Shown here one piece after another: positions 6,546-21,069 of a stretch of 64,000 nt of DNA (positions are counted from its first letter, which is position 1; every line of letters begins with the position of its first letter). The stretch spans positions 62,001 to 126,000 of the forward strand of contig NZ_CP009159.1 of the NCBI RefSeq assembly GCF_000739435.1, in the 5' to 3' direction. A program made the translations under genes and the position numbers. The notes under the pieces were generated by a model that saw only the letters and a list, made by a program, of their open reading frames with translations, was not told the DNA's origin and did no database searches. The DNA comes from Actinobacillus suis ATCC 33415. GTDB taxonomy: Bacteria > Pseudomonadota > Gammaproteobacteria > Enterobacterales > Pasteurellaceae.

Positions 6546-6576
6546 AAAAAGCCTCTGAGAAATCAGAGGCTTTTTT
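6546..6576 (+). terminator. Rho-independent terminator of the tRNA-Asp operon
   Basis: AAAAAGCCTCTGA and TCAGAGGCTTTTTT around a GAAA tetraloop, 10 bases after the second tRNA. Confidence 0.9.
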
Positions 6577-6601
6577 GCTATTTGGCTTTTGAGGCTTTTC
6601 T

Positions 6602-7390
6602 ATGTCTAAACCCTTTAATGGCCGTTACCAACTTGCCGTTGTGATAGTAACGGTTGGGCGCGAATCTTTATTACGTGCAGTTCGTTCTGTTTTTTCTCAG
6701 CAATTTAGCGGAAATATTCAAATTCTGATTGGCGTGGATCTCGATTTATCCGGTCAGCTTCCGCATTATCGACAAATACTTGATCAAGAACGTCCGGCTA
6801 ATGTGGATATCGTTTGGTTAGATCTCGGCTATTCAACCTCTAAACGTCACGGTGGTGTACATGATTGCTATTACGGCGGTTCATTGCGTTCGGCATTGAC
6901 CTTACTTGCTGATAGTGAATTGGTTACTTATCTCGATGATGACGATTGGTTTTTACCGCAACATATCGACAAAATGTATTCCGTATTCTGCCAGTATCCG
7001 GATGTGAATTGGGGACACGCTTTGTGTTACTACGCTGACGGTAATACCGGTGAAATACTGTGTTTAGACGAATTAGAAAGCGTTGGTGTTGATCAGGGTA
7101 TTTTTAAGGATAGTTTCGGCGGCTTTGTGCGTCCATCGGGCTTAACGCTCAATAAACTTAAAACGCTGCCTTATCTCCATTGCTGGTCGCAATCTTTAGC
7201 CCAAGGAGACGGAGAAGATCGCATACTGTTTGATCATTTAAAACAATTGCGTCATTTTTCTTTGGCAGAAGGCACGGTTTGTTGTGCGCTGGATCCGAAA
7301 GATTCGGGGCATGAAATTCGCCTTGCTTTTATCAAGCAAAAAACAGGGCGAGATGTGGTGATGCAAGACAAGCGAGGTTCAACCCGTTGA
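6602..7390 (+). CDS. Family 2 glycosyltransferase
   Basis: A 262-residue soluble protein with the GT-A/GT2 pattern: the N-terminal strand LAVVIVTVGRESLLRAVRSV and an acidic metal/sugar-nucleotide motif VTYLDDDDWFLPQHID near residue 115. No signal peptide or membrane segment is visible. The fold predicts transfer of an activated sugar, but substrate and acceptor cannot be read from the sequence. It stands alone and is convergent with the SufE-like gene, with 2 bases between the stops, so it is not part of a visible polysaccharide cluster. LPS or glycoprotein decoration are possibilities only. Confidence 0.75.
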   Translation: MSKPFNGRYQLAVVIVTVGRESLLRAVRSVFSQQFSGNIQILIGVDLDLSGQLPHYRQILDQERPANVDIVWLDLGYSTSKRHGGVHDCYYGGSLRSALTLLADSELVTYLDDDDWFLPQHIDKMYSVFCQYPDVNWGHALCYYADGNTGEILCLDELESVGVDQGIFKDSFGGFVRPSGLTLNKLKTLPYLHCWSQSLAQGDGEDRILFDHLKQLRHFSLAEGTVCCALDPKDSGHEIRLAFIKQKTGRDVVMQDKRGSTR

Positions 7391-7392
7391 GG

Positions 7393-7773
7393 TTAAGCCG
7401 TAAGAATCAGTTTGTTAATTTGCTGTAATCCGTTTAAACGTGTACTCGTCAGATTTTGTGAGATTTTTAATTGATCAAACAGCTGAGTCAAATCAACATG
7501 AGCTAATTGCGCTGAATCGGCTTCGTTTAATAGTGTTACGACAATAAATAAAATCCCCTGCATTAAACGGGCATCGCTGTAGGCTTGAACTTTACGTGGT
7601 GTTGCTTGAAATTCAAACCATAAGCGGCTTTCACAGCCGTGAATTTCAGGTAATTTTTTTAATTCTTCCTCGCTAGGCTTCGGTAATTGGCGACTAAGTT
7701 GAATTAACAAGCGGTATCTTTCTTCCCAAGATTTGCAAAGTTCAAATTTTTGATAAATATCGGCTAAAGTCAT
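7393..7773 (-). CDS. SufE/CsdE-like sulfur acceptor protein
   Basis: A 126-residue protein of the SufE family. The conserved cysteine is in EIHGCESRLWFEF (about residue 47), equivalent to the GCQS/GCEN motif that accepts persulfide from a cysteine desulfurase (SufS or CsdA). No suf or csd partner lies nearby, which is common in Pasteurellaceae, where the Isc system dominates. Length is slightly shorter than E. coli SufE (138). It is convergent with the glycosyltransferase gene. Whether it serves SufS-, CsdA- or another desulfurase is unknown. Confidence 0.85.
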   Translation of the reverse strand: MTLADIYQKFELCKSWEERYRLLIQLSRQLPKPSEEELKKLPEIHGCESRLWFEFQATPRKVQAYSDARLMQGILFIVVTLLNEADSAQLAHVDLTQLFDQLKISQNLTSTRLNGLQQINKLILTA

Positions 7774-7899
7774 ATTTTTTTATGGATTAAGGCTAAGTTT
7801 TGCAAAAGATTGTAACAATCTGACCGCTTGTTGTTAATGATTTTCTTAAAGTTTGATAGAATTAACAGTATTTCTCAGATTTCGGATAAGGAACCCAAA

Positions 7900-8490
7900 A
7901 TGGCAGTAATTCCAATGGTGGTTGAACAAACCTCAAAAGGCGAAAGATCATACGATATTTATTCACGTTTACTTAAGGAACGTATCATTTTTTTAAACGG
8001 TGAAGTTGAAGACCATATGGCAAACTTGATCGTGGCACAACTTCTTTTCTTAGAATCGGAAGATCCTGAAAAAGATATTTATTTATACATTAACTCACCG
8101 GGTGGTGTTGTTACGGCGGGTTTAGCAATTTACGACACAATGAACTTTATTAAGCCTGATGTTGCAACACTTTGTACCGGACAGGCTTGCTCAATGGGGG
8201 CTTTCTTATTATCCGGCGGTGCAAAAGGCAAACGTTTTGCTTTACCTCACGCACGTGTGATGATTCACCAACCTTTAGGTGGTGCAAGAGGGCAGGCGAC
8301 TGATATTCAAATTCAAGCGCAAGAAATTTTAAAATTAAAAGAAATGCTGACAAGAAGAATGGCAGAACATAGCGGGCAGCCGTTTGAAAAAGTGGCGGCA
8401 GATACCGAACGTGATAATTTTATGTCAGCATTTGAAGCGGCTGAATACGGTTTAATTGATAAAGTTTTAACACACAGAGATACAAAATAA
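7900..8490 (+). CDS. clpP: ATP-dependent Clp protease proteolytic subunit ClpP
   Basis: The serine peptidase that forms the 14-subunit barrel used with ClpX or ClpA. The 196-residue product has the catalytic Ser in [11 protein letters not shown], the His in [10 protein letters not shown] and the Asp in ERDNFMSA. A longer in-frame start exists at 7828, but ATG 7900 is preceded by TAAGGA and gives the usual N-terminus [16 protein letters not shown]. The stop overlaps the clpX start by one base (TAATG), so the two are translationally coupled. Confidence 0.97.
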
Positions 8491-9749
8491 TGGCAAATTT
8501 TGAGAAAGAACCACATTGTAGTTTTTGTGGAAAAAGACGTACCGAAGTGGATCAGCTTGTTGAAGGTACGGAAGGTTATATCTGTAATCACTGTATTGAA
8601 GAATCTTACGCATTGTTAAACGGCGAAGAAGAGCCGTTAATCGATGAAAAACAAGATGAAGAGAAATTCTTTGAAAATGTACCGACTCCACACGAAATTC
8701 ATGCGCATTTAGATGAGTATGTTATCGGTCAAGAACATGCAAAAAAAGTGTTGTCCGTAGCGGTTTATAACCACTATAAACGTTTACGCAATGCGCTTTC
8801 AGGCCATAAGGAAACCAACGGTGTAGAGTTAGGTAAAAGTAATATTTTATTAATTGGTCCGACCGGTAGCGGTAAGACCTTATTGGCGGAAACCTTAGCC
8901 CGCCGTCTAAACGTACCGTTTGCCGTGGCGGATGCAACCACGTTGACGCAAGCCGGCTATGTGGGTGAAGACGTAGAAAACGTAATTCAAAAATTACTAA
9001 TGAAATGCGATTTTGATGCGGAACAAGCGGAGCGTGGTATCGTCTTTATTGATGAGATCGACAAAATTACGCGTAAATCGGAAAGCCCGTCAATTACCCG
9101 TGACGTATCTGGCGAAGGTGTACAGCAGGCGTTATTAAAATTAATTGAAGGAACGGTGGCGAATATCAATCCGCAAGGCAGCCGTAAGCACCCGAAAGGC
9201 GAAACGATTCCGGTTGATACCTCTAAAATCTTATTTATTTGTGGTGGCGCATTTGCCGGCTTAGATAAGCTTGTTGAAGCACGAACCAATAAACAAGGCG
9301 GAATCGGCTTTGGTGCAGAACTTAAAAAAGATAAAGAACGTGAAGATCTCACCGAGTTATTCAAACAAGTTGAGCCGGAAGATTTAGTCAAATTCGGCTT
9401 AATTCCGGAATTAATCGGTCGATTACCGGTGGTGACTCCGTTACAAGAACTTGATGAAGAGGCATTAATTCAAATTTTAACCGAGCCGAAAAATGCGATT
9501 ATCAAGCAATATCAAGCATTATTCCAAATGGAAGGTGTTGAGCTGAAATTTACTAAAGATGCGCTAATTGCGATTGCGCAGAAGTCTATTTCACGCAAAA
9601 CGGGTGCGCGTGGTTTACGTTCGATTGTTGAGAATCTACTATTGGATACGATGTATAACCTACCGACACTTAAAGCAGAGAAAAATGTGAAAAAAGTGAC
9701 GATTGGCAAAGGTTGTGTTGAAAACGGTGATAAGCCGAAAGTAGAGTAA
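8490..9749 (+). CDS. clpX: ATP-dependent Clp protease ATPase subunit ClpX
   Basis: The AAA+ unfoldase that feeds substrates to ClpP. The 419-residue protein has an N-terminal zinc-binding domain (CSFCGK...CNHC, residues 8-35), Walker A GPTGSGKT, pore loop GYVGED, Walker B VFIDEIDK, the RKH loop (SRKHPKG) and sensor 2 in [13 protein letters not shown]. The IGF-type loop that docks on ClpP is present as [10 protein letters not shown]. It overlaps clpP by one base and ends at a hairpin terminator. Confidence 0.97.
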
Positions 9750-9760
9750 GCATAGCTAAA

Positions 9761-9792
9761 ATGGACAATGTTTTTCATTGTCCATTTGTTTT
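9761..9792 (+). terminator. Terminator after clpX
   Basis: ATGGACAATG and CATTGTCCAT around a T-rich loop, then TTGTTTT. Confidence 0.8.
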
Positions 9793-9842
9793 ATCTGTAG
9801 GCATAGCCGTTACGCAAACGATAGTATCTTTAAAGAAATTAT

Positions 9843-11070: not shown

Positions 11071-11087
11071 GATAATCGGGATCGAAC
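11071..11087 (+). repeat. Left attachment repeat
   Basis: GATAATCGGGATCGAAC, identical to the stretch at 20968-20984 inside tRNA-Ala. The bases to its left (CCGCTTGC) do not continue the tRNA 3' end, so this junction copy is incomplete. Confidence 0.85.
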
Positions 11088-11590
11088 TAAGTCTTTTAAA
11101 CCTTGGTATTCCTAGAAAGTTGTGTTTTGATTTTTTCAAAATGTTACTTACAGTGTTACTAAAATTAAAAGTCATCTATAAATTATCCTGTTTTATAGAC
11201 AATTATTTGGATCGTAAGAATGATTAGCGGAATGAATCCTGAAAAAGTAGGGAGTTCCCGAAATAATAGGGATTCATCACACCGGTATGATAGGGGGTTG
11301 TGTTATCGCAACGGTTTAGTTGTGGCCATATAACCACGGTTCACCGGTTAAAAGTTTGAGGATAATTCACTTTACCTGTTTTGGTAAATTATTTCTCCCT
11401 TTTTGGGTAAGGTATGGTGATTTCCCCCACACCTCAAAAAAAGCTAATTTACTCAAATTTGAGCTTAGTTTATTTATTAAGTTGAATTACCTAAGTTGAG
11501 GATAGTTACACAACCACTCTCTAGCCGTCTAAAACCACTGTATAAGATTTTCACACTTTCCACCCTCTCTATTATATAAGGAAAAATTCG
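11088..11590. other. Non-coding left end of the element
   Basis: No credible gene was found in about 500 bases. It holds an integrase arm-type repeat (11141-11164), several short G- and C-run motifs (GGGAGTTCCCG near 11250, GATTTCCCCCACACC near 11420) and the palindrome CTCAAATTTGAG at 11452-11463, which recurs at the other end of the element (19507-19518). No promoter is assigned. Confidence 0.6.
11141..11164 (+). repeat. Putative integrase arm site, left
   Basis: A 24-base sequence beginning ATGTTACTTACAG and ending AGTGTTACTAAAA is repeated exactly at 20827-20850, in the same orientation. Each copy contains TGTTACT twice. Position 54 bases from the att core suits an arm-type site for a tyrosine integrase. 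Confidence 0.65.
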
Positions 11591-11879
11591 TAGTCCAATA
11601 GTCCAATTAGTCCAAAAACTCACTTTTCTTTTTATATTCAATAGGTTACATAAAATTTTTTGGACTATTTTTTTCCATTTTGGACTATTTTAGGTGGCTT
11701 TTGGACTAAATGATTTTGAAGATTTTCATTTTTTTAACTTTAGCATTTAGTCCAAAAAGGGGGTATTTTAGTCCAAAAACGGTGATTTTAGTCCAATGAT
11801 AGTCCAATAATTTTACATCTAACTTATTGATATATAATGATTTCATACCTTAAAAAGGGTGTTTTGGACTATTGGACTA
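11591..11879. repeat. Iteron cluster, candidate replication origin
   Basis: Twelve copies of the heptamer TAGTCCA lie in 289 bases. Seven read forward (starting at 11591, 11599, 11608, 11748, 11769, 11789, 11800) and five inverted as TGGACTA (11661, 11681, 11702, 11865, 11873); many are extended to TAGTCCAAAA. The DNA between is A/T-rich. The cluster is just downstream of the gene for the replication protein. Iterons beside a primase/helicase gene are the known form of P4- and SaPI-type satellite origins. Confidence 0.75.
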
Positions 11880-11962
11880 TTAAAAATATGCTTCCTAATA
11901 GAAAGGGAGAATAAATTTATACAGGTTGTATAAAAAGTGCATTTTATAAACAATAAAGCATA

Positions 11963-11988
11963 ACAAAAAAACCGCCAATAATGGCGGT
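11963..11988 (-). terminator. Terminator of the satellite operon
   Basis: Read leftward, ACCGCCATTATTGGCGGT is followed by a run of seven Ts, 24 bases after the stop of the replication gene. Confidence 0.85.
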
Positions 11989-12011
11989 CTGAATGTAGTT
12001 TAATGATATGG

Positions 12012-14183
12012 CTATTCGTCGCTATTCTCATTGAGAATCTCTATCAGATAAGCTCGGGTTCTCTTTGGGTTGATCTTGTGTGGTATTCGTTGGAGGTATG
12101 CGTAGCCGTTGCCCTCTCCCTTATGAAGAATGCCCGCTTTAACTAATACCGGAAGTGCAACCTCTTTCGTCTGCCCTTGTAAGGCTTCATCTTCAAATAC
12201 GCTTTTGAAGACAAAATAACGGTCATCTTCTACCAGTCGATAACCGGCTTTATTGCTGATAGGCTTCTGTGTGCCGTCCGGTGGAAACTCTTCAAAACGA
12301 GTATCAGCATTTACCAATAGCCAACCGTTCACTTGTTCAATGATCTGTGTATGCTTTTTCGAGTGCCAGCCATAAGCGTTTACCCATTCATTGAAGTTAG
12401 CCGTGATAGCGTTTGATATATCCTTTTCCGTCCATTGTAAGATATCCTTAGCCAATAATAAGGCGGTTTCAATGAGGGCGAATCTATCCGCCATCACCCG
12501 CTTAATTTGAGGTTCTGAATTATCCGGCAAGCTCTTTAATCGAGATTGTTTTACTTTGTCGTATAACGCTCTCAATGCGCTTTTTTCCGCTTGGACTAGA
12601 TAAGTGAGCCAATCTACACCCACCGCACCAAAATAGCGCATGACGTTTGCATTGAGCGCGTCAGCGTGCGTTTTACCGTCCGCCAAGCCGTGAAACTCTG
12701 TCGCTCGTTTCATCGGGATATTGAGTAAGCGGACTAATTGGCCGGCATTGACCTTTATCCCTTGTTGCTTGAGGTAGCTCTCTAAACCTTCCTCACCGGT
12801 GGAGAGATTCGCTACTAGCCATTTAATCGACTTGCGATTTCCACCTTCTTTCGCACCTTGTAACTTCCCTTGTCCGTTAAACAAGCTATAAGCGGTCTGT
12901 GCGACGGCTTTCGGACTGGCTTCGCTGATTTCATCTAACGGCATAAATAGCCCGTTACGGCTAAAGGCTTCGTTCTGTAAGGCCAACGGTGTAGCGTTCC
13001 ATGCTGTACGAGTTTCTCTTGGGTGTCCGTAAATTGAGGAAGCGATATTTAAAGCGGTTGTTTTACCGAATGTTGAATCTTCGTAAAGGTGTACGCCGTA
13101 GCCGTCCGCCTCTAAAGGTTTCAATAATGGCGCACTTAATGCCACGCCAATCGATAACATCATCGACGGATTACCTACGCAATAACGCCCGATATTCTCC
13201 ACCCAGTCCGCTGTTGTTCCGCTTACTCTATATCCTTCGATATTCTGCGTTAAATTGCGGAAAATGGTCGGGGTTTGCGGTTGCCCTAAGGTTTCCCCGT
13301 TTGGCAAGGTAAAAGCGGTTAAATCTTCATTCCAGCCGGTTTTGTCGGTAATGTAATACTGCTTGGCGGTTCGGCTTTTAAATTGCAAATAATCGGCTAA
13401 TTCCGCCCGTAGTGCTTGCTTAGTAGTTACCGTCACATCATTACGTTTCAAATACTGCCAGCCGTCACGCTCACCAATATCTTTTAGCGGCATAACAAGC
13501 GGTCGTTCTTGCTTCTCTTTTTGCAAAATAATGAAATGTTCACTTTCTCCTTTGCCTAGTCCGATGACCTCGACAAAATCGGATAACCATTTTTCGCTTT
13601 CGACTTTCTCACCGTCCACAATACGAGTAGTAACATAGTACAAGCCTTTTAATCCGCCACGCTTACGCATTTCTACACGTGGAGCGGTATCATCTTCGGG
13701 GTTAAGTGTGCGTTGCTCTAAAAGCTCTGCGGTAGCGTGCTGTCCGTTCTTAATGCGCTGATATTCGCTGGTTAGGTTTTCCGTATTAAAGCCTTCATCT
13801 AGCCATTCTACGGCGGTAAGATTCGGGCAATGTTCTGCGAGGTTCATCAATACTCGGGTGCGAAAATCATCTTTATCTTTCGCCAAAGTGGGGAGTTCCC
13901 CCACTTGGAATATTTTAATGAATCGTTGTGCTGCCGGCGCAAGTAACAAGCGGTCTAATTGGCCCAAATCTTTGCTATCCAACAAGCACGGAATCATATC
14001 ATTGCCTAGCTTGAAGCTATCACGAATTAATGCCCATCTTTCGCCTTTGCCTGCTTCTGAATGGTTAGTCTCTTTATTCCATCGGTAATAGGCTTTATGT
14101 ACGTCTCTTCCTGCTAGAATAATCCAATCGTTGAAAGCGTTCGTTTTTGCTAACTGGTCATCATAAAAGCGGATTTTGTTCAT
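12012..14183 (-). CDS. DUF927-family replication protein (putative primase/helicase)
   Basis: A 723-residue protein, the largest in the element. The middle (about residues 320-560) matches the DUF927 ATPase region: GYGVHLYEDSTFGKTTALNI looks like a Walker A with the final GKTT, and GLFMPLDEISEA like a Walker B. The N-terminal 200 residues and the C-terminal 150 show no motif I can name. Proteins of this type replicate satellites and integrative elements. Its place beside the iteron cluster supports an origin-binding helicase or primase role. GAGGTGGAG lies just before ATG 14183. It overlaps the preceding gene by 23 bases. A USS copy is in the coding sequence near 13497. Confidence 0.8.
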   Translation of the reverse strand: MNKIRFYDDQLAKTNAFNDWIILAGRDVHKAYYRWNKETNHSEAGKGERWALIRDSFKLGNDMIPCLLDSKDLGQLDRLLLAPAAQRFIKIFQVGELPTLAKDKDDFRTRVLMNLAEHCPNLTAVEWLDEGFNTENLTSEYQRIKNGQHATAELLEQRTLNPEDDTAPRVEMRKRGGLKGLYYVTTRIVDGEKVESEKWLSDFVEVIGLGKGESEHFIILQKEKQERPLVMPLKDIGERDGWQYLKRNDVTVTTKQALRAELADYLQFKSRTAKQYYITDKTGWNEDLTAFTLPNGETLGQPQTPTIFRNLTQNIEGYRVSGTTADWVENIGRYCVGNPSMMLSIGVALSAPLLKPLEADGYGVHLYEDSTFGKTTALNIASSIYGHPRETRTAWNATPLALQNEAFSRNGLFMPLDEISEASPKAVAQTAYSLFNGQGKLQGAKEGGNRKSIKWLVANLSTGEEGLESYLKQQGIKVNAGQLVRLLNIPMKRATEFHGLADGKTHADALNANVMRYFGAVGVDWLTYLVQAEKSALRALYDKVKQSRLKSLPDNSEPQIKRVMADRFALIETALLLAKDILQWTEKDISNAITANFNEWVNAYGWHSKKHTQIIEQVNGWLLVNADTRFEEFPPDGTQKPISNKAGYRLVEDDRYFVFKSVFEDEALQGQTKEVALPVLVKAGILHKGEGNGYAYLQRIPHKINPKRTRAYLIEILNENSDE

Positions 14184-14385
14184 ACTCCACCTCTTCGATC
14201 ACTTCCTGTAAGTAAGTGTGCGCTTCATCTAAGTATTGGAAGGCTTCCGCCAGTATTTCATCTCTGCTCATCAGCGTACCGTTTTCACGTCGTACCGCAC
14301 CGTTGCCGGTTAAAGCAATCTCAAGGAATATCTTCGCCATATCTAACGGCTGCTTGATTGAATGGAGGGTTTCTAGATTACTCAT
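14161..14385 (-). CDS. Small unknown protein of the satellite (74 aa)
   Basis: An acidic, helical 74-residue protein (MSNLETLHSIKQPLDMAKIF...). No signal, membrane segment or cysteine motif is present. It overlaps its upstream neighbour by 8 bases and the replication gene by 23, so it is translated from the same message. I recognise no family. Its tight coupling to the replication gene suggests an accessory role in replication or its control; this is inference. Confidence 0.65.
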   Translation of the reverse strand: MSNLETLHSIKQPLDMAKIFLEIALTGNGAVRRENGTLMSRDEILAEAFQYLDEAHTYLQEVIEEVEYEQNPLL

Positions 14386-14581
14386 TCTCGCCTCCCTTAA
14401 AGTTTAAATTTTCCATTTCAGATAAGGCAGATATAAGAATGCCGTGAATTCCTTCGATTGCTATACTAATACTTACACCATCCATATCTTGAAGACGTGA
14501 TTTTGACATAGCATCTAATAGGGTCGCCGCTTGCCAACATTTAGCCATTCCTTCGTTAAATTGTGCTTGTTGGTTACTCAT
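14378..14581 (-). CDS. Small unknown protein of the satellite (67 aa)
   Basis: A 67-residue protein (MSNQQAQFNEGMAKCWQAAT...) with two predicted helices and no recognised motif. It overlaps both neighbours by 8 bases, as usual in phage-like operons. It shares the start MSN and similar size with the next gene, and both are acidic, but I see no clear homology between them. Confidence 0.65.
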   Translation of the reverse strand: MSNQQAQFNEGMAKCWQAATLLDAMSKSRLQDMDGVSISIAIEGIHGILISALSEMENLNFKGGENE

Positions 14582-14915
14582 CTTTCGCTACCTCCACCGC
14601 TTTTCGTTCACATTCCGCCAATTTGTAAGCGTTCAATGCTTCGGTCTGTGCTTCGTGAACTTTGATTAATTCATAAATCTGTTGATCACGTTGGCGGTGT
14701 GCCTGTTTAATCTGCCCAATAAGGTAATCATTAAGCGCAAGTAAGCCGTCGGCAATATCGCTGCTATAAGTAAATTCGCTTTCGCCATCTACACTGATGC
14801 ACTCAGAATGATCGACGCTAATCGCACTTGATAAACTATTCGCATAGGTAAGGAGCATATCGAGGTTGTCGGTTTGCTCACGAATATCTTCAATCAATTT
14901 ATTTGTGTTACGCAT
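14574..14915 (-). CDS. Small unknown coiled-coil-like protein of the satellite
   Basis: 113 residues from the ATG at 14915 (MRNTNKLIEDIREQTDNLDM), chosen because GAGGTGG lies 5 bases before it; an in-frame start at 14936 would add 7 residues. The C-terminal half is long, charged and helical (LIGQIKQAHRQRDQQIYELIK...) and could form a coiled coil. It overlaps the Icd-like gene by 8 bases. No function can be assigned. Confidence 0.65.
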   Translation of the reverse strand: MRNTNKLIEDIREQTDNLDMLLTYANSLSSAISVDHSECISVDGESEFTYSSDIADGLLALNDYLIGQIKQAHRQRDQQIYELIKVHEAQTEALNAYKLAECERKAVEVAKDE

Positions 14916-15543
14916 AAACCACCTCTTTAACGGCAAAGAAAGGGCAGACCTTAGCTTTAGCTTGTTCTAAGCTATTGGCTTTAATACGCACGGTATAGCA
15001 AGGGAATGATGAAATCGGTTTTGACGTGTTGCGTAAGTCTAAACGGCTTACGGCTTTGAATAGGTAGATCATGGCTGATAGCTCCACAAGTAAATTTTTA
15101 GAGTCTATCGCTTTGCTTTCCACGGCTTGGCGATAGCGTTTAGCGGGGTGGAAAACTGCGACTTGTGGAACACAGCCAACGATTAAACGTTGCCCACTAA
15201 ACGCTACCATAGAGAGAAATGTAACGAATCCATTTTTGGATTGGTCATTTTCTTTAGGTGTGTTTAGTCCACGAACAAAAAAAGCACGGTCATTGAAAGG
15301 CGTGCTAGTGTTCGCCACAAGTAAATTATTCGAGTTTCCACGCTCGGCTTCCGATTTTGCGAAAGCGAGAGTAGCATAAACCTTATTCGCTAAACTTGTA
15401 AAGCAATTCTTTTTACAAGCGGTCGAATTTTCTTCATTTTTTGCAAATTCCGCCGATAGTACGGAATGAACCATATCTAAATAACCTTGCGGATTATTGT
15501 CGATTGTGTCGCTATTTGTTGTGATGTACTGTAAAATATTCAT
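14908..15543 (-). CDS. Icd/Ash-like phage protein (tentative)
   Basis: A 211-residue protein with a central segment (FVRGLNTPKENDQSKNGFVT and GCVPQVAVFHPAKRY) and a C-terminal segment (SFPCYTVRIKANSLEQAKAK) that recall proteins annotated as Icd-like or Ash-like in P4/P1-type elements of this family. In P1, Icd inhibits host cell division. Whether this protein does so is unknown. It follows a 153-base gap with two hairpins, which may be a regulatory leader. An uptake signal, ACAAGCGGTCG, lies in the coding sequence near 15418. Confidence that it is a gene is high; in the name, moderate. Confidence 0.6.
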   Translation of the reverse strand: MNILQYITTNSDTIDNNPQGYLDMVHSVLSAEFAKNEENSTACKKNCFTSLANKVYATLAFAKSEAERGNSNNLLVANTSTPFNDRAFFVRGLNTPKENDQSKNGFVTFLSMVAFSGQRLIVGCVPQVAVFHPAKRYRQAVESKAIDSKNLLVELSAMIYLFKAVSRLDLRNTSKPISSFPCYTVRIKANSLEQAKAKVCPFFAVKEVVYA

Positions 15544-15696
15544 CGGTTAAATACCTTTTTTAAATTTTTGTTCTTGCCCTCTTGGTGTCGCTTTGAGGGC
15601 GTTTTTATTTGCTAATAAAGTCAAGTTTTACTAGTGGAACTTTTGAAAAAGTGTTCCATTGTCGTACCGTATTCGCACCGTATCTTTACCGTTCTG
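15544..15696 (-). promoter_or_regulatory. Leader with two hairpins before the Icd-like gene
   Basis: GCCCTC (15576-15581) pairs with GAGGGC (15595-15600), and TGGAAC (15635-15640) with GTTCCA (15653-15658) with further inner T/A pairs. It is the only real gap in the leftward operon. In P1 and P4 this kind of gene is controlled by an antisense RNA, so a leader role is plausible. Nothing direct shows it. Confidence 0.4.
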
Positions 15697-16080
15697 TTAC
15701 CGTTTCCGTCTTCGTTTTGTTGCTCGTGCTAACTGTTTCAACATTGTTTTAAAACCTCTGATTTCTTGTAGAAAGACTGTCGATTGTGATGGTGTCCGCT
15801 TGCTGCATTCACTCATTTCACTTACTAAATCCGTGCGATAAGTTCGCTTTCTAAATCTTGGTAAGCGCTCCTCACGTTCCACCATTGCTTGCTTTTCTTG
15901 CTCGATTAGCTCCACGGTGCGATAGTCATTTAACAGTTCGCTTGCTCTTGCTCGTAGCGTTACCGCTTTCATTCGCTCGGCTCGTTCTGTACCTAATACG
16001 GCTTTTAAGGCGTGTGTTGCATTGCCCTTGTGGGCGTACTCAATAGCGAACCTTTGCCGGATTTGATGACCGTATCCCAT
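15697..16080 (-). CDS. Small basic protein resembling small terminase (tentative)
   Basis: A 127-residue, very basic protein. The N-terminal half, RFAIEYAHKGNATHALKAVL then LRARASELLNDYRTVELIE, follows the helix-turn-helix pattern of phage small terminase subunits (an RF..EY..g.NAT.A...ag start, later A..LL....V...I). The C-terminus ends in a Lys/Arg cluster (LARATKRRRKR). If correct, it could redirect the packaging of a helper phage to satellite DNA, as TerS does in PICIs. The match is by eye only, and another DNA-binding role is possible. The gene starts 17 bases after the Rha-family gene ends. Confidence 0.5.
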   Translation of the reverse strand: MGYGHQIRQRFAIEYAHKGNATHALKAVLGTERAERMKAVTLRARASELLNDYRTVELIEQEKQAMVEREERLPRFRKRTYRTDLVSEMSECSKRTPSQSTVFLQEIRGFKTMLKQLARATKRRRKR

Positions 16081-16097
16081 TGCGCTAACCTCCGAAC

Positions 16098-16799
16098 TTA
16101 ACCGCTAACATTTTGATTCTTCCCTACTGCCAGTTTGCGCCAGTAATGTAATGCACTTGCTTGTAAATGATTTTTACGTACTGTGTACTCCAAACCTAAC
16201 TTAATCATTGTGGCGTTTTCAGTAACCAGTAAATGGATTAAATCAAGTTGTTCAGGCGTCAGAAATTGGCGGATTTCAGCATCTGCCGGATAACCATTCT
16301 GTGATAACCATTTCTTTTTACTCATGCCCAACGCTACACAATAAACGAGGGTATTTTCGCGGCTGTACGCGTGCGGATCTTCTTTTTCAGAAGTCTGCTG
16401 CTTGAAATCAATCGCTTCATTAAGTAAGTGTTGCGTATCTCTTAAGCGGTCTTTGCTATCAAGTTGCTTTTTCATTCGGTTAAATTCGGCGATATACATC
16501 TCTTTAAATTGCATTGCTTTTTTGCCGGTAAATCCCATAACTAAAAGCGTAAAGCCGTCTTGGGTCATTAAGAACATCTTCCGGCTTTCTCCCTTTTGGT
16601 CGGTGTACTTAACGGGCTTAAAATTCAGCCGGTTAAATTCTTCTGAACACGCTAAATTTTCAAGACGTTGCAAAATATTTTTATGCTGTTTTCCGAAATA
16701 TTCCGCTACTTTAAGGGTGTTTGTCATTGCAACGGTTTCTTTACGAAACACTTTAGGAAATACCGCTTCAATCGGTAATTGCTCATTTAATCCTTTCAT
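16098..16799 (-). CDS. Rha-family phage regulatory protein
   Basis: A 233-residue protein. Residues 26-115 match the Rha domain: TLKVAEYFGKQHKNILQRLE and then MFLMTQDGFTLLVMGFTGKK followed by FKEMYIAEFNRMKKQL. Rha proteins of phages such as P22 and phi80 interfere with growth in hosts lacking IHF and are thought to be regulators. The C-terminal 110 residues carry no motif I know. It overlaps the upstream gene by 4 bases (ATGA). Confidence 0.85.
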   Translation of the reverse strand: MKGLNEQLPIEAVFPKVFRKETVAMTNTLKVAEYFGKQHKNILQRLENLACSEEFNRLNFKPVKYTDQKGESRKMFLMTQDGFTLLVMGFTGKKAMQFKEMYIAEFNRMKKQLDSKDRLRDTQHLLNEAIDFKQQTSEKEDPHAYSRENTLVYCVALGMSKKKWLSQNGYPADAEIRQFLTPEQLDLIHLLVTENATMIKLGLEYTVRKNHLQASALHYWRKLAVGKNQNVSG

Positions 16800-17071
16800 C
16801 TCATTTTCCCCTTTCTAATCGTTTCCAATTGCTTAATTCTTTTCGCATATAGCCATATTGAAGTCTGCCGGCTCTCGTTCTGTCGTATTTGTTGCTTCGC
16901 TTCTAAAATCTGAATATGCGTAGCAAGGCAAGTAATAAGCTCCTCAAGCGGGTAGGGTTCTTCGTCGTTGTACAGGCTCTTAAACGTGAACACGTTCTTA
17001 TTGCCGGCAGCGTAGTAATCAAATGCGTGCTGAATTAATACCGTATTCATCTTGGCTATTTCACACTTCAT
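16796..17071 (-). CDS. Small unknown protein of the satellite (91 aa)
   Basis: A 91-residue helical protein (MKCEIAKMNTVLIQHAFDYY...) with a basic C-terminus. A second in-frame ATG lies 7 codons in and could be the start. It overlaps the Rha-family gene by 4 bases and follows the 126-residue gene after 15 bases. I recognise no family. Confidence 0.6.
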   Translation of the reverse strand: MKCEIAKMNTVLIQHAFDYYAAGNKNVFTFKSLYNDEEPYPLEELITCLATHIQILEAKQQIRQNESRQTSIWLYAKRIKQLETIRKGKMR

Positions 17072-17086
17072 ACTGAATCACTCCTG

Positions 17087-17467
17087 TTACACCCCTTTCA
17101 CCGGTTTACGTACTTTGTGCTGTAATTGCGCCTGTGTTGGTGCTGCTAACTGATTAAGTACGGATTCCGCCACCGTTGGCGGATAGGGAATCGCTGCGTT
17201 ACGACTTACCGCTTTTCCATTTAGGAAAGTGATTAATCTCTCCGCCTGTGTCTTATCTGCTAAGAAATAGCGAAAATGCGTACCTCCGTTTTGGTTATGT
17301 TCTTGAATACGAATAAATTCAGTCTGTGTAATAGCTTCTAGCTCGTTGATCTCGTTTCGACCGCTGGTGATGCCTAATTCCCTCATTCCGTCCAGTTCAG
17401 AAAAGCCGTTACGGCTTGTTAATAAATAACTTCCTAGCTTTTCCTTGCGTGTAGTATTTGCGTTCAT
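17087..17467 (-). CDS. Putative winged-helix protein of the satellite
   Basis: A 126-residue protein. Residues 8-55 (LGSYLLTSRNGFSELDGMRE, then LGITSGRNEINELE) look like a helix-turn-helix that joins a Leu-Ile-rich recognition helix, followed by an Arg/Asn-rich strand (RIQEHNQNGGTHFRYFLADK) as in winged-helix proteins. The C-terminus is Pro/Gln-rich and basic. Regulation of the satellite is the most likely role, but this is inference. It starts 11 bases after the AlpA-like gene. Confidence 0.6.
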   Translation of the reverse strand: MNANTTRKEKLGSYLLTSRNGFSELDGMRELGITSGRNEINELEAITQTEFIRIQEHNQNGGTHFRYFLADKTQAERLITFLNGKAVSRNAAIPYPPTVAESVLNQLAAPTQAQLQHKVRKPVKGV

Positions 17468-17478
17468 AAGCTAGCCCC

Positions 17479-17718
17479 TTACACTTGATTACCGGCTAAC
17501 TTATCAATAGCCTTGGTACTGTTTGCCGATAACGTGCTAAGCCCTCTTTCGTTGTTGATTAAATCATTAAGCCATTGTTCTACGTCCGATGATTTCCAAC
17601 GTGAAGCACGCCCTATCTTGATAGGCGGGGAAAGTTTGCCCGCTTGAATTTGCTTGTAGATAAAAGCACGACTAAATCCGCTTACGGCTTGAATATGTTT
17701 GATGGTTTTGAGTTCCAT
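17479..17718 (-). CDS. alpA: AlpA-family regulator
   Basis: A 79-residue protein of the AlpA/MerR-like group. The family core is clear: ITRKE-like start MELKTIKHIQAVSGFSRAFI, then YKQIQAGKLSPPIKIGRASR followed by WKSSDVEQWL. AlpA proteins are small DNA-binding regulators of P4-like satellites; in Gram-negative PICIs AlpA activates excision and replication genes. It follows a second AlpA-like gene by 12 bases. Confidence 0.85.
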   Translation of the reverse strand: MELKTIKHIQAVSGFSRAFIYKQIQAGKLSPPIKIGRASRWKSSDVEQWLNDLINNERGLSTLSANSTKAIDKLAGNQV

Positions 17719-17730
17719 TGAATATTCCTC

Positions 17731-17964
17731 CTATGCCGCTTCAATTCGGTTATTTGCTAATGCTTTGATAAATGTGTTTACTTCGCTTTCGAGATAACCG
17801 ACTGAATTAGCCCCTAATTTGATTTTCTTCGGGCAATCAGGGCGATAACGTTTTGATTTAGGGTTTTCCCAGTCTGTCAGGGTAGATTTACTTACGCCTA
17901 AGCGTGATAGGTACTCCGGCTTGCGGATAATACGTTCAGAAATGTTTTTATCTTGGTGGGTCAT
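17731..17964 (-). CDS. Second AlpA-like regulator
   Basis: A 77-residue protein with the same plan: RKPEYLSRLGVSKSTLTDWE as a helix-turn-helix, then a strand-turn with PKKIKLGANSVGYLESEVNT like the LG....W...EV..W end of AlpA. It is the first gene of the leftward operon, so it is the candidate switch. A pair of GTTAAATAAC repeats lies upstream. Having two AlpA-like genes side by side is less usual; one may be an excisionase and the other a repressor or activator. Confidence 0.75.
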   Translation of the reverse strand: MTHQDKNISERIIRKPEYLSRLGVSKSTLTDWENPKSKRYRPDCPKKIKLGANSVGYLESEVNTFIKALANNRIEAA

Positions 17965-17983
17965 TGATAATCCTCTCCATAAA

Positions 17984-18065
17984 GTTAAATAACTTGCCGT
18001 AAACCTTGGTAGGTCTTGGCGGTATGAAGTGGATTTTGGCTGAGTATTGATAAAGGTTAAATAAC
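17984..18065. promoter_or_regulatory. Repeated GTTAAATAAC motif upstream of the AlpA genes
   Basis: The 10-mer GTTAAATAAC, with GTTA/TAAC half-sites, occurs at 17984-17993 and 18056-18065, in the region where the promoter of the leftward operon must be. Operator function is inferred. Confidence 0.45.
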
Positions 18066-18163
18066 GCTAACAGCTAACTAGATTCCTTTACTGTTAATTC
18101 ATTTCTTTAACTGTTAAGGAAACAAAAAAGCCGATCACTTTTCTGTAATCAACTTTTTAAATA

Positions 18164-18769
18164 TTATTTATTTTTGCGGTTTGGGTTATATGGAGCTATC
18201 CATTTTTTTATTTGAGCATGAGACTTATCAGAAATCTTTATTTGGCGGATATGTTCAGCTATTTCATCTAGGGATAGTTTTGGAGTACGTTTCCACATCG
18301 TTTTAGCTTCATCTATTGCTTTTTGTTTATTTGGATCTGTTCTATTCTGTTTTCTTCTGTTTTGTTTAGCTGTAATCATTTTAAGATTGTTAGCTATTGC
18401 CTCACTAGCCAAGAGCATAAAGCCAATATGGTTTAAAGCTTTTTGTAAATGCGCAACAGCTTCAAGAGTTTCATTATAATTTAAAAATACATAACCCTTT
18501 TCTTCAACAAGAGTCTTTATTGTATTTATATTCTGTTTATGTTCATTCTCTATTATTTCTAGGCTTTCATATAACTTGTTCCATTTATTTTCGCCTATTG
18601 AACTTAACCAACTAATAGTACTATCTAAATTAGCTTCTAATTGATTAGCAAACTCTTTTAATAATTCCGCCCTATTTTCTTCACTAAACATCTTATGCTG
18701 ATTGGAAATATATTTATTCTGCTTATGTATTTCCTCAAGACTTTCAAAATCATTTAATTTTACTTTCAT
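18164..18769 (-). CDS. Unknown helical protein, candidate cargo gene
   Basis: A 201-residue protein lying between the integrase and the AlpA operon, a place where satellites often carry extra genes. It is helical and rich in Lys, Glu and Asn, with a likely coiled coil at residues 25-90. A basic stretch (TAKQNRRKQNRTDPNKQ) precedes a C-terminal region, KAIDEAKTMWKRTPKLSLDE and KSHAQIKKWIAPYNP, that could be a helix-turn-helix. Base composition is more AT-rich than the rest of the element, suggesting separate origin. No family recognised. Defence or immunity against phages is possible but unproven. The upstream gap holds no clear promoter. Confidence 0.65.
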   Translation of the reverse strand: MKVKLNDFESLEEIHKQNKYISNQHKMFSEENRAELLKEFANQLEANLDSTISWLSSIGENKWNKLYESLEIIENEHKQNINTIKTLVEEKGYVFLNYNETLEAVAHLQKALNHIGFMLLASEAIANNLKMITAKQNRRKQNRTDPNKQKAIDEAKTMWKRTPKLSLDEIAEHIRQIKISDKSHAQIKKWIAPYNPNRKNK

Positions 18770-18901
18770 GTCTTAGCCTTTCAAACGGTTAATTTTCACC
18801 AAAGTTTAATAATTCATTTTATTTGGAATTCGTAAGTTAATGATGGATAAATTAAAAATACTCATTCATAAACGTCCCTACACGCTGCCCTATTAAGAGA
18901 G

Positions 18902-18970
18902 TGAGCAACAGGAAACTAATAGGGGTAGTTTCTTTTCGGCTCGGGTAATTAGTCCGTTCCTAGTTGCTCA
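18902..18970. ncRNA. Candidate structured RNA (C4-like architecture)
   Basis: TGAGCAAC (18902-18909) pairs with GTTGCTCA (18963-18970) and encloses two hairpins. The first is GAAACTA (18912-18918) with TAGTTTC (18926-18932) and loop ATAGGGG; the second has stem CGG/CCG (18937-18939, 18954-18956). The loop is complementary to CCCTAT at 18888-18893, just outside. An enclosed pair of hairpins with a loop complementary to nearby sequence recalls the C4 antisense RNA of P1/P4-type phages. Strand and identity are not established. Confidence 0.35.
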
Positions 18971-19520
18971 AATTGACTGCCGGTTAAATCGGCTTTGATT
19001 GGTCTGTATTGTATCAGATAGGTGGATAAAATAACAGATTATCCTGCTACTGTTTTTAACTTCCTTCGTTGGGGGGAAGTCTTGCCCTTTGTGCGAATAA
19101 TTAGGCGATAGCAGGATTCCGCTATCGGATAATTCAGCCGGTAAACGGTTTTAATTCCTGTTCGTTTGTTTCGTTATTAATGTTTAGCTGTTTTAGTGTG
19201 CGGCGTGGGGATTTCCCCCATGCTGCCCTAATTTATGAGGCTTGTACCTAATTCGACATCAATCGTCATCTTTTAAGCCTTTGTGCTGAATGGAAGGTTT
19301 CTTATAAAATGAGGTAAAAGCCTTGTGCCGGCTTGTTCCTAGATCGTAGTAGCTTATTGATTCAATGAAAATATTTTTAAATGATGATGATGCCTAGAAA
19401 TCGTAAAATCTGCCGAAGACCGCGCGGCCCCAACCCCGTGGAAAGGGTATCCCCTCCGGAGTACCTTTTTATATTCAGGTTTTACGACATTAAGGCGGTA
19501 GTTCTCCTCAAATTTGAGGC

Positions 19521-19544
19521 AACCGGCTCAATATTGAGCCGGTT
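19521..19544. terminator. Perfect palindrome after the integrase gene
   Basis: AACCGGCTCAAT followed at once by its inverted copy, a 24-base perfect palindrome 17 bases beyond the integrase stop. It could fold as a terminator stem or be a protein site; there is no T-run. Confidence 0.45.
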
Positions 19545-19560
19545 AGTTATACCCCTACCA

Positions 19561-20781
19561 TTAAATAGTCGCCACCATTGAACAACGCTCTACATAATCC
19601 CCCCACATTTGCATCACGCCTATACGTTGTTCTAAGTAGGTGGATTTGTTATAGGCTTGGCTAACCACATTCCCCACACTATGCGCTAGGCAAGCTTCTG
19701 CCACTTCGTGCGTTACGTCATTATCAGCTAGATAGGTTCTGGCTAAAGACCGCATACCGTGAGCGGTCAAAACATCTTTATAGCCCATTCGCTTAAGTGC
19801 CACATTTGCCGTGCTGCTATTCATATGTTCCGCCGGTTTACTGTAATGCGGGAAAACGTGTTTTAAATGCCCTGTAATCGGTTTAAGTCGTTCAAGTACT
19901 CGGATTGCTTGCGTTGATAGTGGCACAATATGCTGTAAACGTCCTTTCCTCGTTCCTTTCATTTTTTCCGGTGGGATTGTCCACAATCTTTTTTCTAAAT
20001 CAATCTCTGCCCATTCAACACTAACCGCTTCACGGGGGCGAACCATCGTTAGTAGTTGCCATTGAATCAAGTAACGGGTTTGCGGTTCAATATGAGCATT
20101 TGCAATCTTTGCCATTAGTTCGGGCAATTTATCAGGCGGAATAGTAGGGTTGTTTTCCTTTTGCTTCTTCGCAAACATTTCTCCAATCGTCGAACAAGGA
20201 TTGTATTTTACGAGTCCGCCATTTACCGCAAAATTCATGATTTCGTTGATCATACGAATTAAGCGATGCAAGGTATCATTCAGATTCTTTTTATAAAGTG
20301 GTTGTAATGCAGTAACCACAACAGGGGCGGAAATCTCATTAAGTGATAGGTGTCCTAAGTAAGGCAAGGCATAAAGCTCTAATCGACGATACTCTTTATT
20401 AATCGTACTTTCCTGTACCTCATCGCGCTTCTTTTCTCGCCATTTTTCAGAAAGGTTTTTAAAGGTGTTGGATTTCTCAAAGTTTTTTTGTTCTTCGAGT
20501 TGTTGGCGGTAGATTTTAGGATCAATACCTTTGGCTAATAGCTGATTGTATTCATTGCGGATTTCTCGAGCTTGCTTCAAGGAAATTTCCGGATACACGC
20601 CTAAACCTAAATTAGACCGATTTTTAGCATTAGGCTTAAAGTAGTTAAAAATCCAATTTTTCGCCCCGTTTGGTTTAATTCGTAAATATAATCCGTTGCC
20701 GTCAGATAGGTTGTACTCTTTATCTTGCGGTTTAGCTTTATCTACTTCGGTATTAGTAAGGGGCTTTGTAGTTCTTGCCAT
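19561..20781 (-). CDS. int: Site-specific tyrosine integrase, P4 type
   Basis: A 406-residue tyrosine recombinase. The N-terminal arm-binding DUF4102 domain is seen in LSDGNGLYLRIKPNGAKNWI, and the catalytic domain has the Arg in MVRPREAVSVEW, HGMRSLART (H-x-x-R), the second His in CLAHSVGN and the Tyr near QAYNKSTYLE. P4-type integrases recombine into tRNA 3' ends, in line with tRNA-Ala 180 bases away. A GTG at 20790 would add 3 residues; I prefer ATG 20781 (MARTTKPLTNTE). Its promoter region contains candidate arm sites, so it may repress itself. Confidence 0.95.
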   Translation of the reverse strand: MARTTKPLTNTEVDKAKPQDKEYNLSDGNGLYLRIKPNGAKNWIFNYFKPNAKNRSNLGLGVYPEISLKQAREIRNEYNQLLAKGIDPKIYRQQLEEQKNFEKSNTFKNLSEKWREKKRDEVQESTINKEYRRLELYALPYLGHLSLNEISAPVVVTALQPLYKKNLNDTLHRLIRMINEIMNFAVNGGLVKYNPCSTIGEMFAKKQKENNPTIPPDKLPELMAKIANAHIEPQTRYLIQWQLLTMVRPREAVSVEWAEIDLEKRLWTIPPEKMKGTRKGRLQHIVPLSTQAIRVLERLKPITGHLKHVFPHYSKPAEHMNSSTANVALKRMGYKDVLTAHGMRSLARTYLADNDVTHEVAEACLAHSVGNVVSQAYNKSTYLEQRIGVMQMWGDYVERCSMVATI

Positions 20782-20793
20782 ATGTAACACTCA

Positions 20794-20806
20794 TTTTAGT
20801 AACACT
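20794..20806 (-). repeat. Inverted copy of the integrase arm motif
   Basis: TTTTAGTAACACT, the reverse complement of AGTGTTACTAAAA found at 11152-11164 and 20838-20850, lies 13 bases before the integrase start codon. Confidence 0.6.
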
Positions 20807-20826
20807 AATTTTTGCTATTTGTGCCG

Positions 20827-20850
20827 ATGTTACTTACAGTGTTACTAAAA
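20827..20850 (+). repeat. Putative integrase arm site, right
   Basis: Exact 24-base copy of the sequence at 11141-11164, in the same orientation, 117 bases from the right att core. On excision the two copies would flank the core in attP. Confidence 0.65.
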
Positions 20851-20960
20851 ATCAATGATTTCAGAAGACGTGAATTGACAATAAAAGACAATAAAAAAGC
20901 CTTAAAGCGTTGTGCTATAAGGCTTGCGTAGGCGTTTATTTACATCAGTTTATTTTGAAT

Positions 20961-21069
<109 letters not shown>

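What the first reader, a model, noticed from the sequence alone, without database searches (positions are those of the whole stretch)
11071..20984. A previously undescribed-looking phage satellite (PICI-like) in tRNA-Ala
Seen: 17-bp direct repeats at the ends, one in tRNA-Ala(GGC); integrase next to the tRNA; two AlpA-like genes; DUF927 replication gene; iteron cluster; no capsid, tail, large terminase or lysis gene. Known: int, alpA and a replication protein with its own origin are the core of Gram-negative phage-inducible chromosomal islands. Inference: this is such an island, mobilised by a helper phage of Pasteurellaceae.
Basis: partly seen in the sequence, partly recalled or inferred. Interest (0 to 1): 0.85.

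Follow-up and report, generated by a model that had tools for sequence, protein, structure and literature searches.

The report
Phage satellite with stolen helper signals
A 9.9-kb parasite of bacterial viruses sits in a tRNA gene of an Actinobacillus chromosome and carries copies of two DNA signals of lambda-like phages, the packaging site and the replication-origin repeats, which suggests how it gets a phage to copy and carry it.

Summary
An insertion (11071-20984) in tRNA-Ala(GGC) carries integrase, two AlpA proteins, Rha, C4/isrK immunity RNA, a DUF927 primase with an iteron origin and a small-terminase-like gene. No structural, lysis or relaxase family was hit. It has the anatomy of a Gram-negative phage-inducible chromosomal island (PICI); induction and transfer cannot be tested here. 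The tRNA site is empty in four related species. A second copy with another integrase lies at tRNA-Met in the same genome.

(1) A non-coding block at about 19380-19470 is a lambda-type cos site by sequence. It matches phages Pmp14 and Fels-1 just upstream of terS, lies beside the terminase genes of 16 of 16 related prophages (13 by a strict motif), and occurs in 11 of 21 satellite loci (strict motif). (2) A 52-bp cassette at 11228-11279 holds two iterons of the lambda-O type. In phages this pair lies inside gene O (19 of 20 viral loci). Satellites of five genera carry two, outside O.

Best reading: a known kind of satellite that shows its helper both a stolen packaging site and a stolen (competing or decoy) origin. 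Packaging at cos is well supported by sequence; the function of the iterons is inferred.

The parts
11071..11087 (+). attL, 17-bp core repeat
   Evidence: exact repeat of 20968-20984
11141..11164 (+). 24-bp repeat just inside the left end, possible integrase arm site
   Evidence: exact copy at 20827-20850; role inferred
11228..11279 (+). 52-bp cassette with two lambda-O-type 17-bp iterons (11237-11253 and 11256-11272)
   Evidence: same iterons inside gene O of Mannheimia phage 535AP2 and of prophages; precisely absent from one relative, L045a
11591..11879 (.). own replication origin (inferred): 12 TTGGACTA iterons with AT-rich stretches
   Evidence: conserved in relatives together with the primase gene
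12012..14183 (-). DUF927 primase/helicase
   Evidence: PF06048 1e-47, phrog_1139 DNA primase 1.4e-77
14161..14936 (-). three small genes of the replication operon (74, 67 and 120 aa)
   Evidence: same order in several Actinobacillus relatives; no convincing family hit
14908..15543 (-). Ash/Icd-like reading frame (PF10554) that overlaps the immunity RNA
   Evidence: PF10554 3.4e-11
15126..15214 (-). C4 antisense (immunity) RNA
   Evidence: Rfam RF01695, 63 bits against cut-off 45; in 7 of 7 relatives searched
15277..15366 (-). isrK/seqA-like RNA upstream of C4
   Evidence: Rfam RF01394, 51.6 bits against cut-off 50
15697..16080 (-). small-terminase-like DNA-binding protein (127 aa)
   Evidence: itself below the Terminase_2 cut-off (17 against 26.1 bits), but 13 of 28 family members hit it; model resembles the SF6 small terminase DNA-binding domain and viral TerS models, weak E-values
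16098..16799 (-). Rha-family regulator
   Evidence: PF09669 1.2e-30
16796..17467 (-). two conserved small genes (91 and 126 aa)
   Evidence: relatives at the same place in related islands
17479..17718 (-). AlpA-like regulator 2
   Evidence: PF05930 23.8 bits against cut-off 21; HTH_17
17731..17964 (-). AlpA-like regulator 1
   Evidence: PF05930 32.1 bits against cut-off 21
18164..18769 (-). variable slot gene (201 aa) with C-terminal helix-turn-helix-like domain
   Evidence: no DNA match in the 8 relatives compared; protein similarity only to the C-terminal part of the G067 slot gene; 4 database homologues apart from itself; model confident only at about residues 146-194
18847..19043 (.). conserved non-coding leader between int and the slot gene
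   Evidence: 92-96% identical DNA blocks in 5 of 8 relatives, whose slot genes differ
19239..19469 (+). cos block; motif starts at 19420, predicted 12-nt cohesive stretch 19425-19436
19561..20790 (-). tyrosine integrase
   Evidence: PF13356 4.2e-25, PF00589 2.6e-19
20968..20984 (+). attR, 17-bp core inside tRNA-Ala(GGC) (20961-21036)

Best explanation
The element is a Gram-negative PICI-type phage satellite of Actinobacillus. Shown by sequence: site-specific insertion in tRNA-Ala; integrase and AlpA; C4/isrK immunity RNA ahead of the replication operon; its own primase and iteron cluster; a lambda-type cos site; and two lambda-O-type iterons outside any O gene. Inferred mechanism: when a lambdoid phage infects or is induced, AlpA/Rha-driven expression overcomes the C4 RNA brake, the island excises and replicates from its own origin, and the helper terminase cuts its concatemers at the stolen cos and fills helper heads, perhaps steered by the satellite's TerS-like protein. 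The two O-type iterons act as a competing helper origin: helper O protein binds them, which takes O away from the phage origin and may also start satellite copies. Confidence: PICI-type satellite about 0.95; packaging at this cos by a lambda-like helper about 0.85; iterons bound by a helper O protein about 0.75; whether decoy or minimal origin is open.
For: Anatomy. Empty attB in 4 of 9 genus genomes. Related islands next to tRNA-Ala, tRNA-Met and tmRNA, with other integrases but the same core. cos: matches non-coding DNA just upstream of terS in Pmp14 (2e-15) and Fels-1 (2e-4), and weakly (0.09) the same position in PSTCR8lys; beside the terminase genes in 16 of 16 related prophages, 13 by the strict motif; strict motif in 11 of 21 satellite loci and 0 times in 200 shuffled windows, with no Pmp14-type terminase or portal gene in any of the 21; same layout as lambda's cohesive end, CCGCG-12 nt-CGT; same-genus satellite and prophage cos more alike than expected, p about 0.0004 with one satellite per genus, 6 genera. 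Iterons: 13 matches in 11 of 140 family genomes against 0 for the reversed control pattern; 19 of 20 viral loci inside gene O with 3-6 iterons, 1 a satellite; satellites carry two. Inside Actinobacillus the iteron stretch is 34-35/36 identical while the flanks are 43-48/60 and 21-23/31. Literature: two iterons plus an AT-rich tract form a minimal ori-lambda (PMC7466680); plasmids with oop plus ori-lambda iterons silence lambda replication (PMC3349717).
Against: No excision, induction or transfer data exist here. The own genome has no prophage with this terminase and no phage copy of the iterons. No phage was found with both this cos type and these iterons: the G007 prophage with the iterons has another terminase. 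Satellites of G005 and G006 carry iterons but not this cos, and 10 of 21 satellite loci lack the strict motif. A script found no AlpA match in 4 of the 21 loci. The G007 island at the same tRNA shows no left copy of the 17-bp repeat, and no clear att repeats were found for the islands in L043, L044, L045 and L049. The first iteron of the window copy has one changed base in its conserved arm. In lambda the iterons alone did not inhibit; oop RNA was needed too. AT-rich DNA beside the iterons is not consistent across satellites. E. coli island EcCICFT073 has no such iterons. The cos of the satellites of G067, G081 and G042 is closest to a prophage of another genus.
Confidence: 0.8

Rival explanations
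1. The island is a PICI packaged at cos, but the two O-type iterons are a passive scar of recombination with a phage O gene and do nothing.
For: Around the G065 iterons there is a stretch weakly similar to O (36% over 39 residues), and G011 has a short O-like frame nearby. Only 5 of 21 satellite loci carry the pair.
Against: The iteron stretch is better conserved than its flanks in three pairwise comparisons with the window copy. Satellites carry two iterons, in different flanking contexts, while O genes carry 3-6. One relative lacks exactly the cassette with flanks intact.
Confidence: 0.25
2. The iteron pair is mainly a minimal, helper-driven replication origin rather than a decoy.
For: Two iterons plus an AT-rich tract suffice for ori-lambda in vitro (PMC7466680). 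DNA upstream of the cassette in the window is 73% AT against 59% downstream. The G042 satellite has iterons about 260 bp from its cos and no detectable primase of the known kinds.
Against: The window island has an uninterrupted primase gene and its own iteron cluster. The AT-rich side is upstream, not downstream as in lambda, and the G011 and G042 cassettes have no AT-rich neighbour. The G042 element may simply be decayed.
Confidence: 0.3
3. A defective prophage or a P4-like satellite rather than a PICI.
For: C4/CI-type RNA is also a P4 feature.
Against: No structural or lysis gene; none of the P4 marker proteins (recalled: Psu, Sid, Delta) appeared in Pfam or PHROG scans; the cos site is lambda type, not checked against P2; order and unidirectional transcription follow PICIs.
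Confidence: 0.07
4. A mobilizable integrative element moved by conjugation.
For: DUF927 proteins also occur on plasmids.
Against: No relaxase in the element nor in the families listed for 133 non-core proteins of 19 other satellite loci, with 3 of 28 Pfam and 32 of 57 PHROG families not listed; 60 of 64 plasmid records with a match are typed non-mobilizable; cos and C4 RNA point to phages.
Confidence: 0.02

Closest known systems
EcCICFT073 and other E. coli PICIs (PMC6092414, PMC6739421)
   Same: int, a small HTH regulator in the AlpA place, Icd-like frame, primase, origin 3' of the primase, mostly co-directional genes, lambda-type cosN
   Different: Here no capsid or head genes and no PerC; DUF927 primase; O-type iterons, absent from EcCICFT073; a TerS-like protein of the Terminase_2 type (homology to Rpp not tested)
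Pasteurellaceae PICIs: PmCI172 (PMC6092414) and the Aggregatibacter, Necropsobacter and Pasteurella reference PICIs of PMC10111431
   Same: Host family and kind of element as described in those papers; their sequences were not compared here
   Different: PmCI172 has a capsid gene and a Mu-like helper; most of the Pasteurellaceae reference PICIs are said to hold capsid genes. This island has none and shows a lambda-type cos
Satellite P4
   Same: RNA-based (C4/CI type) immunity; fused primase with its own iterons (the latter recalled)
   Different: No P4 marker proteins seen; lambda-type cos; PICI gene order
Lambda inhibition phenotype plasmids (PMC3349717)
   Same: Extra copies of lambda iterons interfere with theta replication of the phage
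   Different: Laboratory plasmids that need oop transcription; here a natural satellite with two iterons; no search for an oop-like RNA beyond Rfam
PLE and phage nuclease Odn (PMC8263062)
   Same: Origin iterons as a battleground between satellite and helper
   Different: There the phage mimics the satellite's initiator; here the satellite carries the phage's iterons

Membership tests
Gram-negative PICI | integrase at one end and site-specific insertion | tested here: met
Gram-negative PICI | AlpA master regulator | tested here: met
   two Phage_AlpA proteins above cut-off; their regulatory role not tested
Gram-negative PICI | primase/replication gene followed by an iteron origin with AT-rich DNA | tested here: met
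   DUF927 gene, 12 iterons 3' of it; origin function not tested
Gram-negative PICI | genes transcribed in one direction | tested here: met
   all 13 named genes on the minus strand
Gram-negative PICI | no phage structural (capsid genes allowed in some) or lysis genes | tested here: met
   relatives, (only the first 25 families listed)
Gram-negative PICI | size typically 12-15 kb | tested here: inconclusive
   9.9 kb, smaller than typical
Gram-negative PICI | attachment site never used by prophages | tested here: inconclusive
   in 9 genus genomes the site is empty, holds an island with this integrase or a remnant of it; not surveyed wider
Gram-negative PICI | cos or pac site, or TerS, for helper packaging | tested here: met
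   cos by sequence; TerS-like protein
Gram-negative PICI | phage-dependent induction, packaging and helper interference | not testable with these tools
   needs experiments
P4-like satellite | P4 marker proteins (Psu, Sid, Delta; list recalled) | tested here: not met
   no such family among Pfam/PHROG hits
capsid-forming PICI | own capsid, portal and terminase genes (recalled) | tested here: not met
lambda-type origin | tandem TCCC-N9-GGGA iterons bound by O | tested here: met
   sequence only; O binding not tested
lambda-type origin | AT-rich unwinding tract next to the last iteron | tested here: inconclusive
   AT-rich on the upstream side only

The most novel reading that the evidence does not exclude
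Satellites of Pasteurellaceae repeatedly capture both cis-signals by which lambdoid helpers recognise their own DNA, the cos site and a two-iteron version of the O-protein origin, and carry them as small exchangeable cassettes. The island would then be a natural cosmid with a stolen origin, copied by and competing with its helper at initiation as well as at packaging; some satellites (such as the one in G042) may rely on the stolen origin alone.
Probability: 0.45. Interest if true: 0.78.

Novelty: new variant of a known kind. Interest (0 to 1): 0.6.

Why it matters
PICIs are known to hijack helper packaging, but the papers I looked into describe them as replicating from their own origin. If O-type iterons on satellites bind helper O, replication initiation becomes a second cis-level point of piracy or interference. 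The helper class can be read directly from DNA, and genetic tests with cassette deletions become simple. The cos and iteron cassettes also give sequence handles for matching satellites to helpers across Pasteurellaceae, where one PICI study noted that tools to manipulate Pasteurella multocida were lacking (PMC6092414).

Tried and rejected
The block 18847-19043 had no convincing phage match (best E 0.3) and is kept only as a conserved leader. The idea that 11150-11420 is a second cos was dropped when its phage match proved to lie in gene O. An RNA-structure reading of the iteron cassette was dropped: fold z-score -0.91. Defence cargo: PADLOC gave nothing solid for the window's slot gene (E 0.0088 only) and, of the 9 relatives' proteins given with it, Fic-type and other hits for one. 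The structure model of the slot protein is poor outside its C-terminus. The viral-contig search with the primase found no relative. Lambda iterons in E. coli: all 60 listed of 1328 matching records lie in a gene annotated replication protein, so no E. coli satellite was seen, but 1268 records were not listed. Relaxed cos hits are weak on the motif alone (50 in 30 shuffled windows); claims rest on the strict motif or on position beside terS. Rows dropped: the same-genus cos test left out the G138 and G111 prophages and the G138 satellite, which did not fit the script's core pattern, and kept the degenerate G105 satellite site; the G138 satellite and prophage do share an unusual cos variant. Of 156 listed non-core proteins (85 residues or more) from 19 loci I gave 133 to the family scans, leaving out mostly close copies; L052 was not in that list, and only the first 25 families were shown in each. 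Literature on helper origins in satellites: searches listed no report by title and abstract start; full texts were not read except the passages cited, and the library lacks most subscription journals.
Full report
OBSERVATION. The 17-bp repeats are exact at 11071-11087 and 20968-20984, the right one inside tRNA-Ala(GGC) at 20961-21036. The 13 genes I recognise in the element lie on the minus strand. Families: integrase (PF13356, PF00589), two AlpA proteins, Rha (PF09669), Ash (PF10554) and DUF927 primase. Rfam adds a C4 antisense RNA at 15126-15214 and isrK at 15277-15366, both above the gathering score. C4 is found in 7 of 7 Actinobacillus-genus loci searched (L043-L049) and isrK in 6 of 7. 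An alignment of seven such regions shows two C4 sequence groups; the window copy and the second copy of the same genome belong to the same one.

INSERTION. In the nine genomes of the genus the tRNA-Ala locus is empty in four (G001, G003, G005, G008), holds an island with the same integrase in two (G000, G007) and shows only right-end remnants in three (G002, G004, G006) (G007 integrase 98.8% identical). In the four empty sites about 60 to 120 bp lie between the end of the left-flank match and the tRNA, so the window copy appears to have lost some bases at the left junction. The G007 island shows no left copy of the 17-bp repeat with up to 3 mismatches.

RELATIVES. The primase finds matches in 67 of 140 family genomes at E <= 0.001; the weakest cover only the N-terminal part. 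The own genome holds a second island at tRNA-Met (L043): 99.5% identical over 4,079 bp around the origin and primase, about 94% over a 1.36-kb block further on, and with a 48% identical integrase. Relatives lie next to tRNA-Met (G005, L044), tmRNA (G002, G067) and tRNA-Ala (G007). For L045 (G005), L046 (G003) and L047 (G006) the site was not established: no tRNA was found in L046 and L047, and the tRNA-Glu of L045 lies at its far end. A repeat search found a 14-bp copy of the tmRNA end in L050 but no clear att repeats in L043, L044, L045 or L049. The usual order is int, variable slot gene, AlpA, small genes with Rha and the TerS-like gene, Ash/C4, small genes, primase, origin (whose output was cut for L052). 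In the 21 loci a script found int in 19 and AlpA in 17. The slot genes are mostly unrelated to each other in their main part; one is a Fic protein. Among 133 non-core proteins of 19 relatives no capsid, tail, portal, large-terminase or relaxase family appears in the listed results; small-terminase and toxin-antitoxin families do. Not all families were listed.

PACKAGING SITE. Comparing islands showed a conserved non-coding block at 19239-19469 that sits between int and the slot gene in the window but at the far end beside the origin in L043 and L046. It matches Pasteurella phage Pmp14 (82% over about 90 bp, E 2e-15) and Salmonella phage Fels-1 (75%, 2e-4), in non-coding DNA just upstream of the small terminase gene, and weakly Providencia phage PSTCR8lys (E 0.09), upstream of a gene that the record calls hypothetical ('Fels-1 prophage protein') in the small terminase place. 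The layout equals the cohesive end of phage lambda read from its record: CCGCG, 12 nt, CGT. Prophages with a Pmp14-type large terminase were found in 16 of 140 family genomes (that of G051 is in pieces). All 16 have the site beside the terminase genes, 13 by a strict motif and three (G138, G133, G111) only by a relaxed one. The strict motif occurs in 11 of 21 satellite loci (window and L043-L062) and never in 200 shuffled windows. None of the 21 loci holds a Pmp14-type terminase or portal gene, so these are not prophage sites; four (L043, L047, L051, L058) have weak similarity (25-27%) to a Mannheimia small terminase. In L051 and L061 the site lies 2.5-3 kb beyond the primase gene, and the ends of those islands were not mapped. 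The 12-nt stretch of the G002 island equals that of the G008 prophage, the G051 island equals the G051 prophage, and the G106 island equals the G105 prophage of its genus. Over 62 nt, satellites resemble same-genus prophages more than others: permutation p 5e-5 for 11 satellites, 3.5e-4 with one per genus (6 genera). The satellites of G067, G081 and G042 do not follow this. The own genome has no prophage of this terminase type.

TERS-LIKE PROTEIN. The 127-aa product of 15697-16080 has 68 database matches at E <= 0.001, several called terminase by their source. 13 of 28 aligned members hit Terminase_2 at E <= 0.05; the window protein itself stays below the curated cut-off. The AlphaFold model (mean pLDDT 77) is closest in the PDB to the SF6 small terminase DNA-binding domain (E 1.6, probability 0.75) and in the viral library to many small terminase models (best E about 0.1). 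By analogy with Rpp (PMC6739421 passages) it may redirect packaging; this is inference.

STOLEN ORIGIN REPEATS. A 37-bp stretch matched gene O of Mannheimia phages. It consists of two tandem 17-bp repeats of the lambda form TCCC-N9-GGGA, at 11237-11253 and 11256-11272. The Mannheimia O gene has four, the G007 prophage O gene three, G117 four and G130 six. As a positive control, the same kind of scan found the four lambda-type iterons in the O gene of the CFT073 prophage that lies close to EcCICFT073, and none in EcCICFT073. A pattern search of 140 family genomes (up to 2 mismatches) gave 13 matches in 11 genomes and none for the reversed control pattern. By context, four matches (three genomes) are prophage O genes; eight are satellites (G000, G005 twice, G006, G011, G042, G067, G089); the remaining one (G065, on a 4.8-kb contig) lies in a stretch weakly similar to O, with an Ash match and an antirepressor gene nearby. 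In viral contigs 19 of 20 loci are O genes with 3-6 iterons, some probably the same phage twice, and the other is a satellite. Satellites carry two repeats; the G089 pair includes a variant repeat that the counting script missed. In Actinobacillus the cassette is 34-35/36 identical between the window and three other copies while the flanks are 43-48/60 and 21-23/31, and one G005 locus has exactly the cassette missing with both flanks intact. The pair was in 5 of 21 satellite loci. The flanks differ between genera, which suggests repeated capture.

MECHANISM. [quoted passage not shown] PMC3349717 (abstract and two sections) reports that plasmids with oop and ori-lambda iterons silence lambda replication, iterons 3-4 being needed, the AT-rich part not, and the iterons alone not sufficient. 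Both roles, competing origin and decoy, are therefore reasonable. The window cassette has 73% AT upstream and 59% downstream, the opposite side from lambda; other satellites vary. The G042 satellite has iterons about 260 bp from cos and no primase matching DUF927 or the D5 primases of G011 and G089, which favours an origin role there, unless it is decayed. No phage with both this cos type and these iterons was found; the G007 prophage with the iterons has a different terminase. The helper of the window island is thus a predicted mosaic, not an observed phage.

COMPARISON WITH KNOWN SYSTEMS. The layout fits the four-zone plan of Gram-negative PICIs with AlpA and C4/isrK RNAs (PMC10111431 passages) and the criteria of PMC6092414 (section 4 part 1 and passages), except for its small size. 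Pasteurellaceae PICIs are known, but PmCI172 has a Mu-like helper and a capsid gene. I found no report of helper origin iterons on a phage satellite in the listings; that library is incomplete and most of those papers were not read.

VERDICT. A PICI-type satellite, a new member of a known kind by anatomy. The helper-type iterons make it a new variant, of moderate to good interest, with simple decisive tests.

Noticed in passing
G000:C1:564000-583999 (locus L043): Second satellite in the same genome at tRNA-Met with 99.5% identical origin-primase-C4 segment, another integrase, a Fic-type slot gene, and an Rha gene that reads as two frames.
   Followed up: partly
L117, L118, L119 (G002, G006, G004): Remnants of the right end of the same element at tRNA-Ala, with the flanking genes still in place.
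   Followed up: partly
L128 (G042:C3), 2543-9820: Satellite with int, AlpA, Rha and Ash but no recognisable primase; O-type iterons lie about 260 bp from its cos site.
   Followed up: partly
L045, 12900-12958: Another array of three TCCC-N9-GGGA-like repeats with different cores between the TerS-like and Ash genes; its binding protein is unknown.
   Followed up: no
window 18164-18769 and the same slot in relatives: Genes between int and AlpA differ from island to island, often behind a conserved leader; several share a related C-terminal part, as if a DNA-binding end is joined to changing sensors or effectors.
   Followed up: partly
G086, contigs C2, C6, C7, C29, C30: Six equal-scoring matches to residues 4-164 of the primase, five of them in frames of 615 codons; looks like a multi-copy element.
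   Followed up: no
plasmid records such as NZ_CP069874 and NZ_CP148430: Small (6-22 kb) 'plasmids', mostly enterobacterial in the listing, with DUF927 primases; some may be excised satellites deposited as plasmids.
   Followed up: no
window 11013 (just outside), 13495, 13946, 15415: ACAAGCGGTC words, which I recall as the Actinobacillus-type DNA uptake signal, three of them inside the satellite.
   Followed up: no
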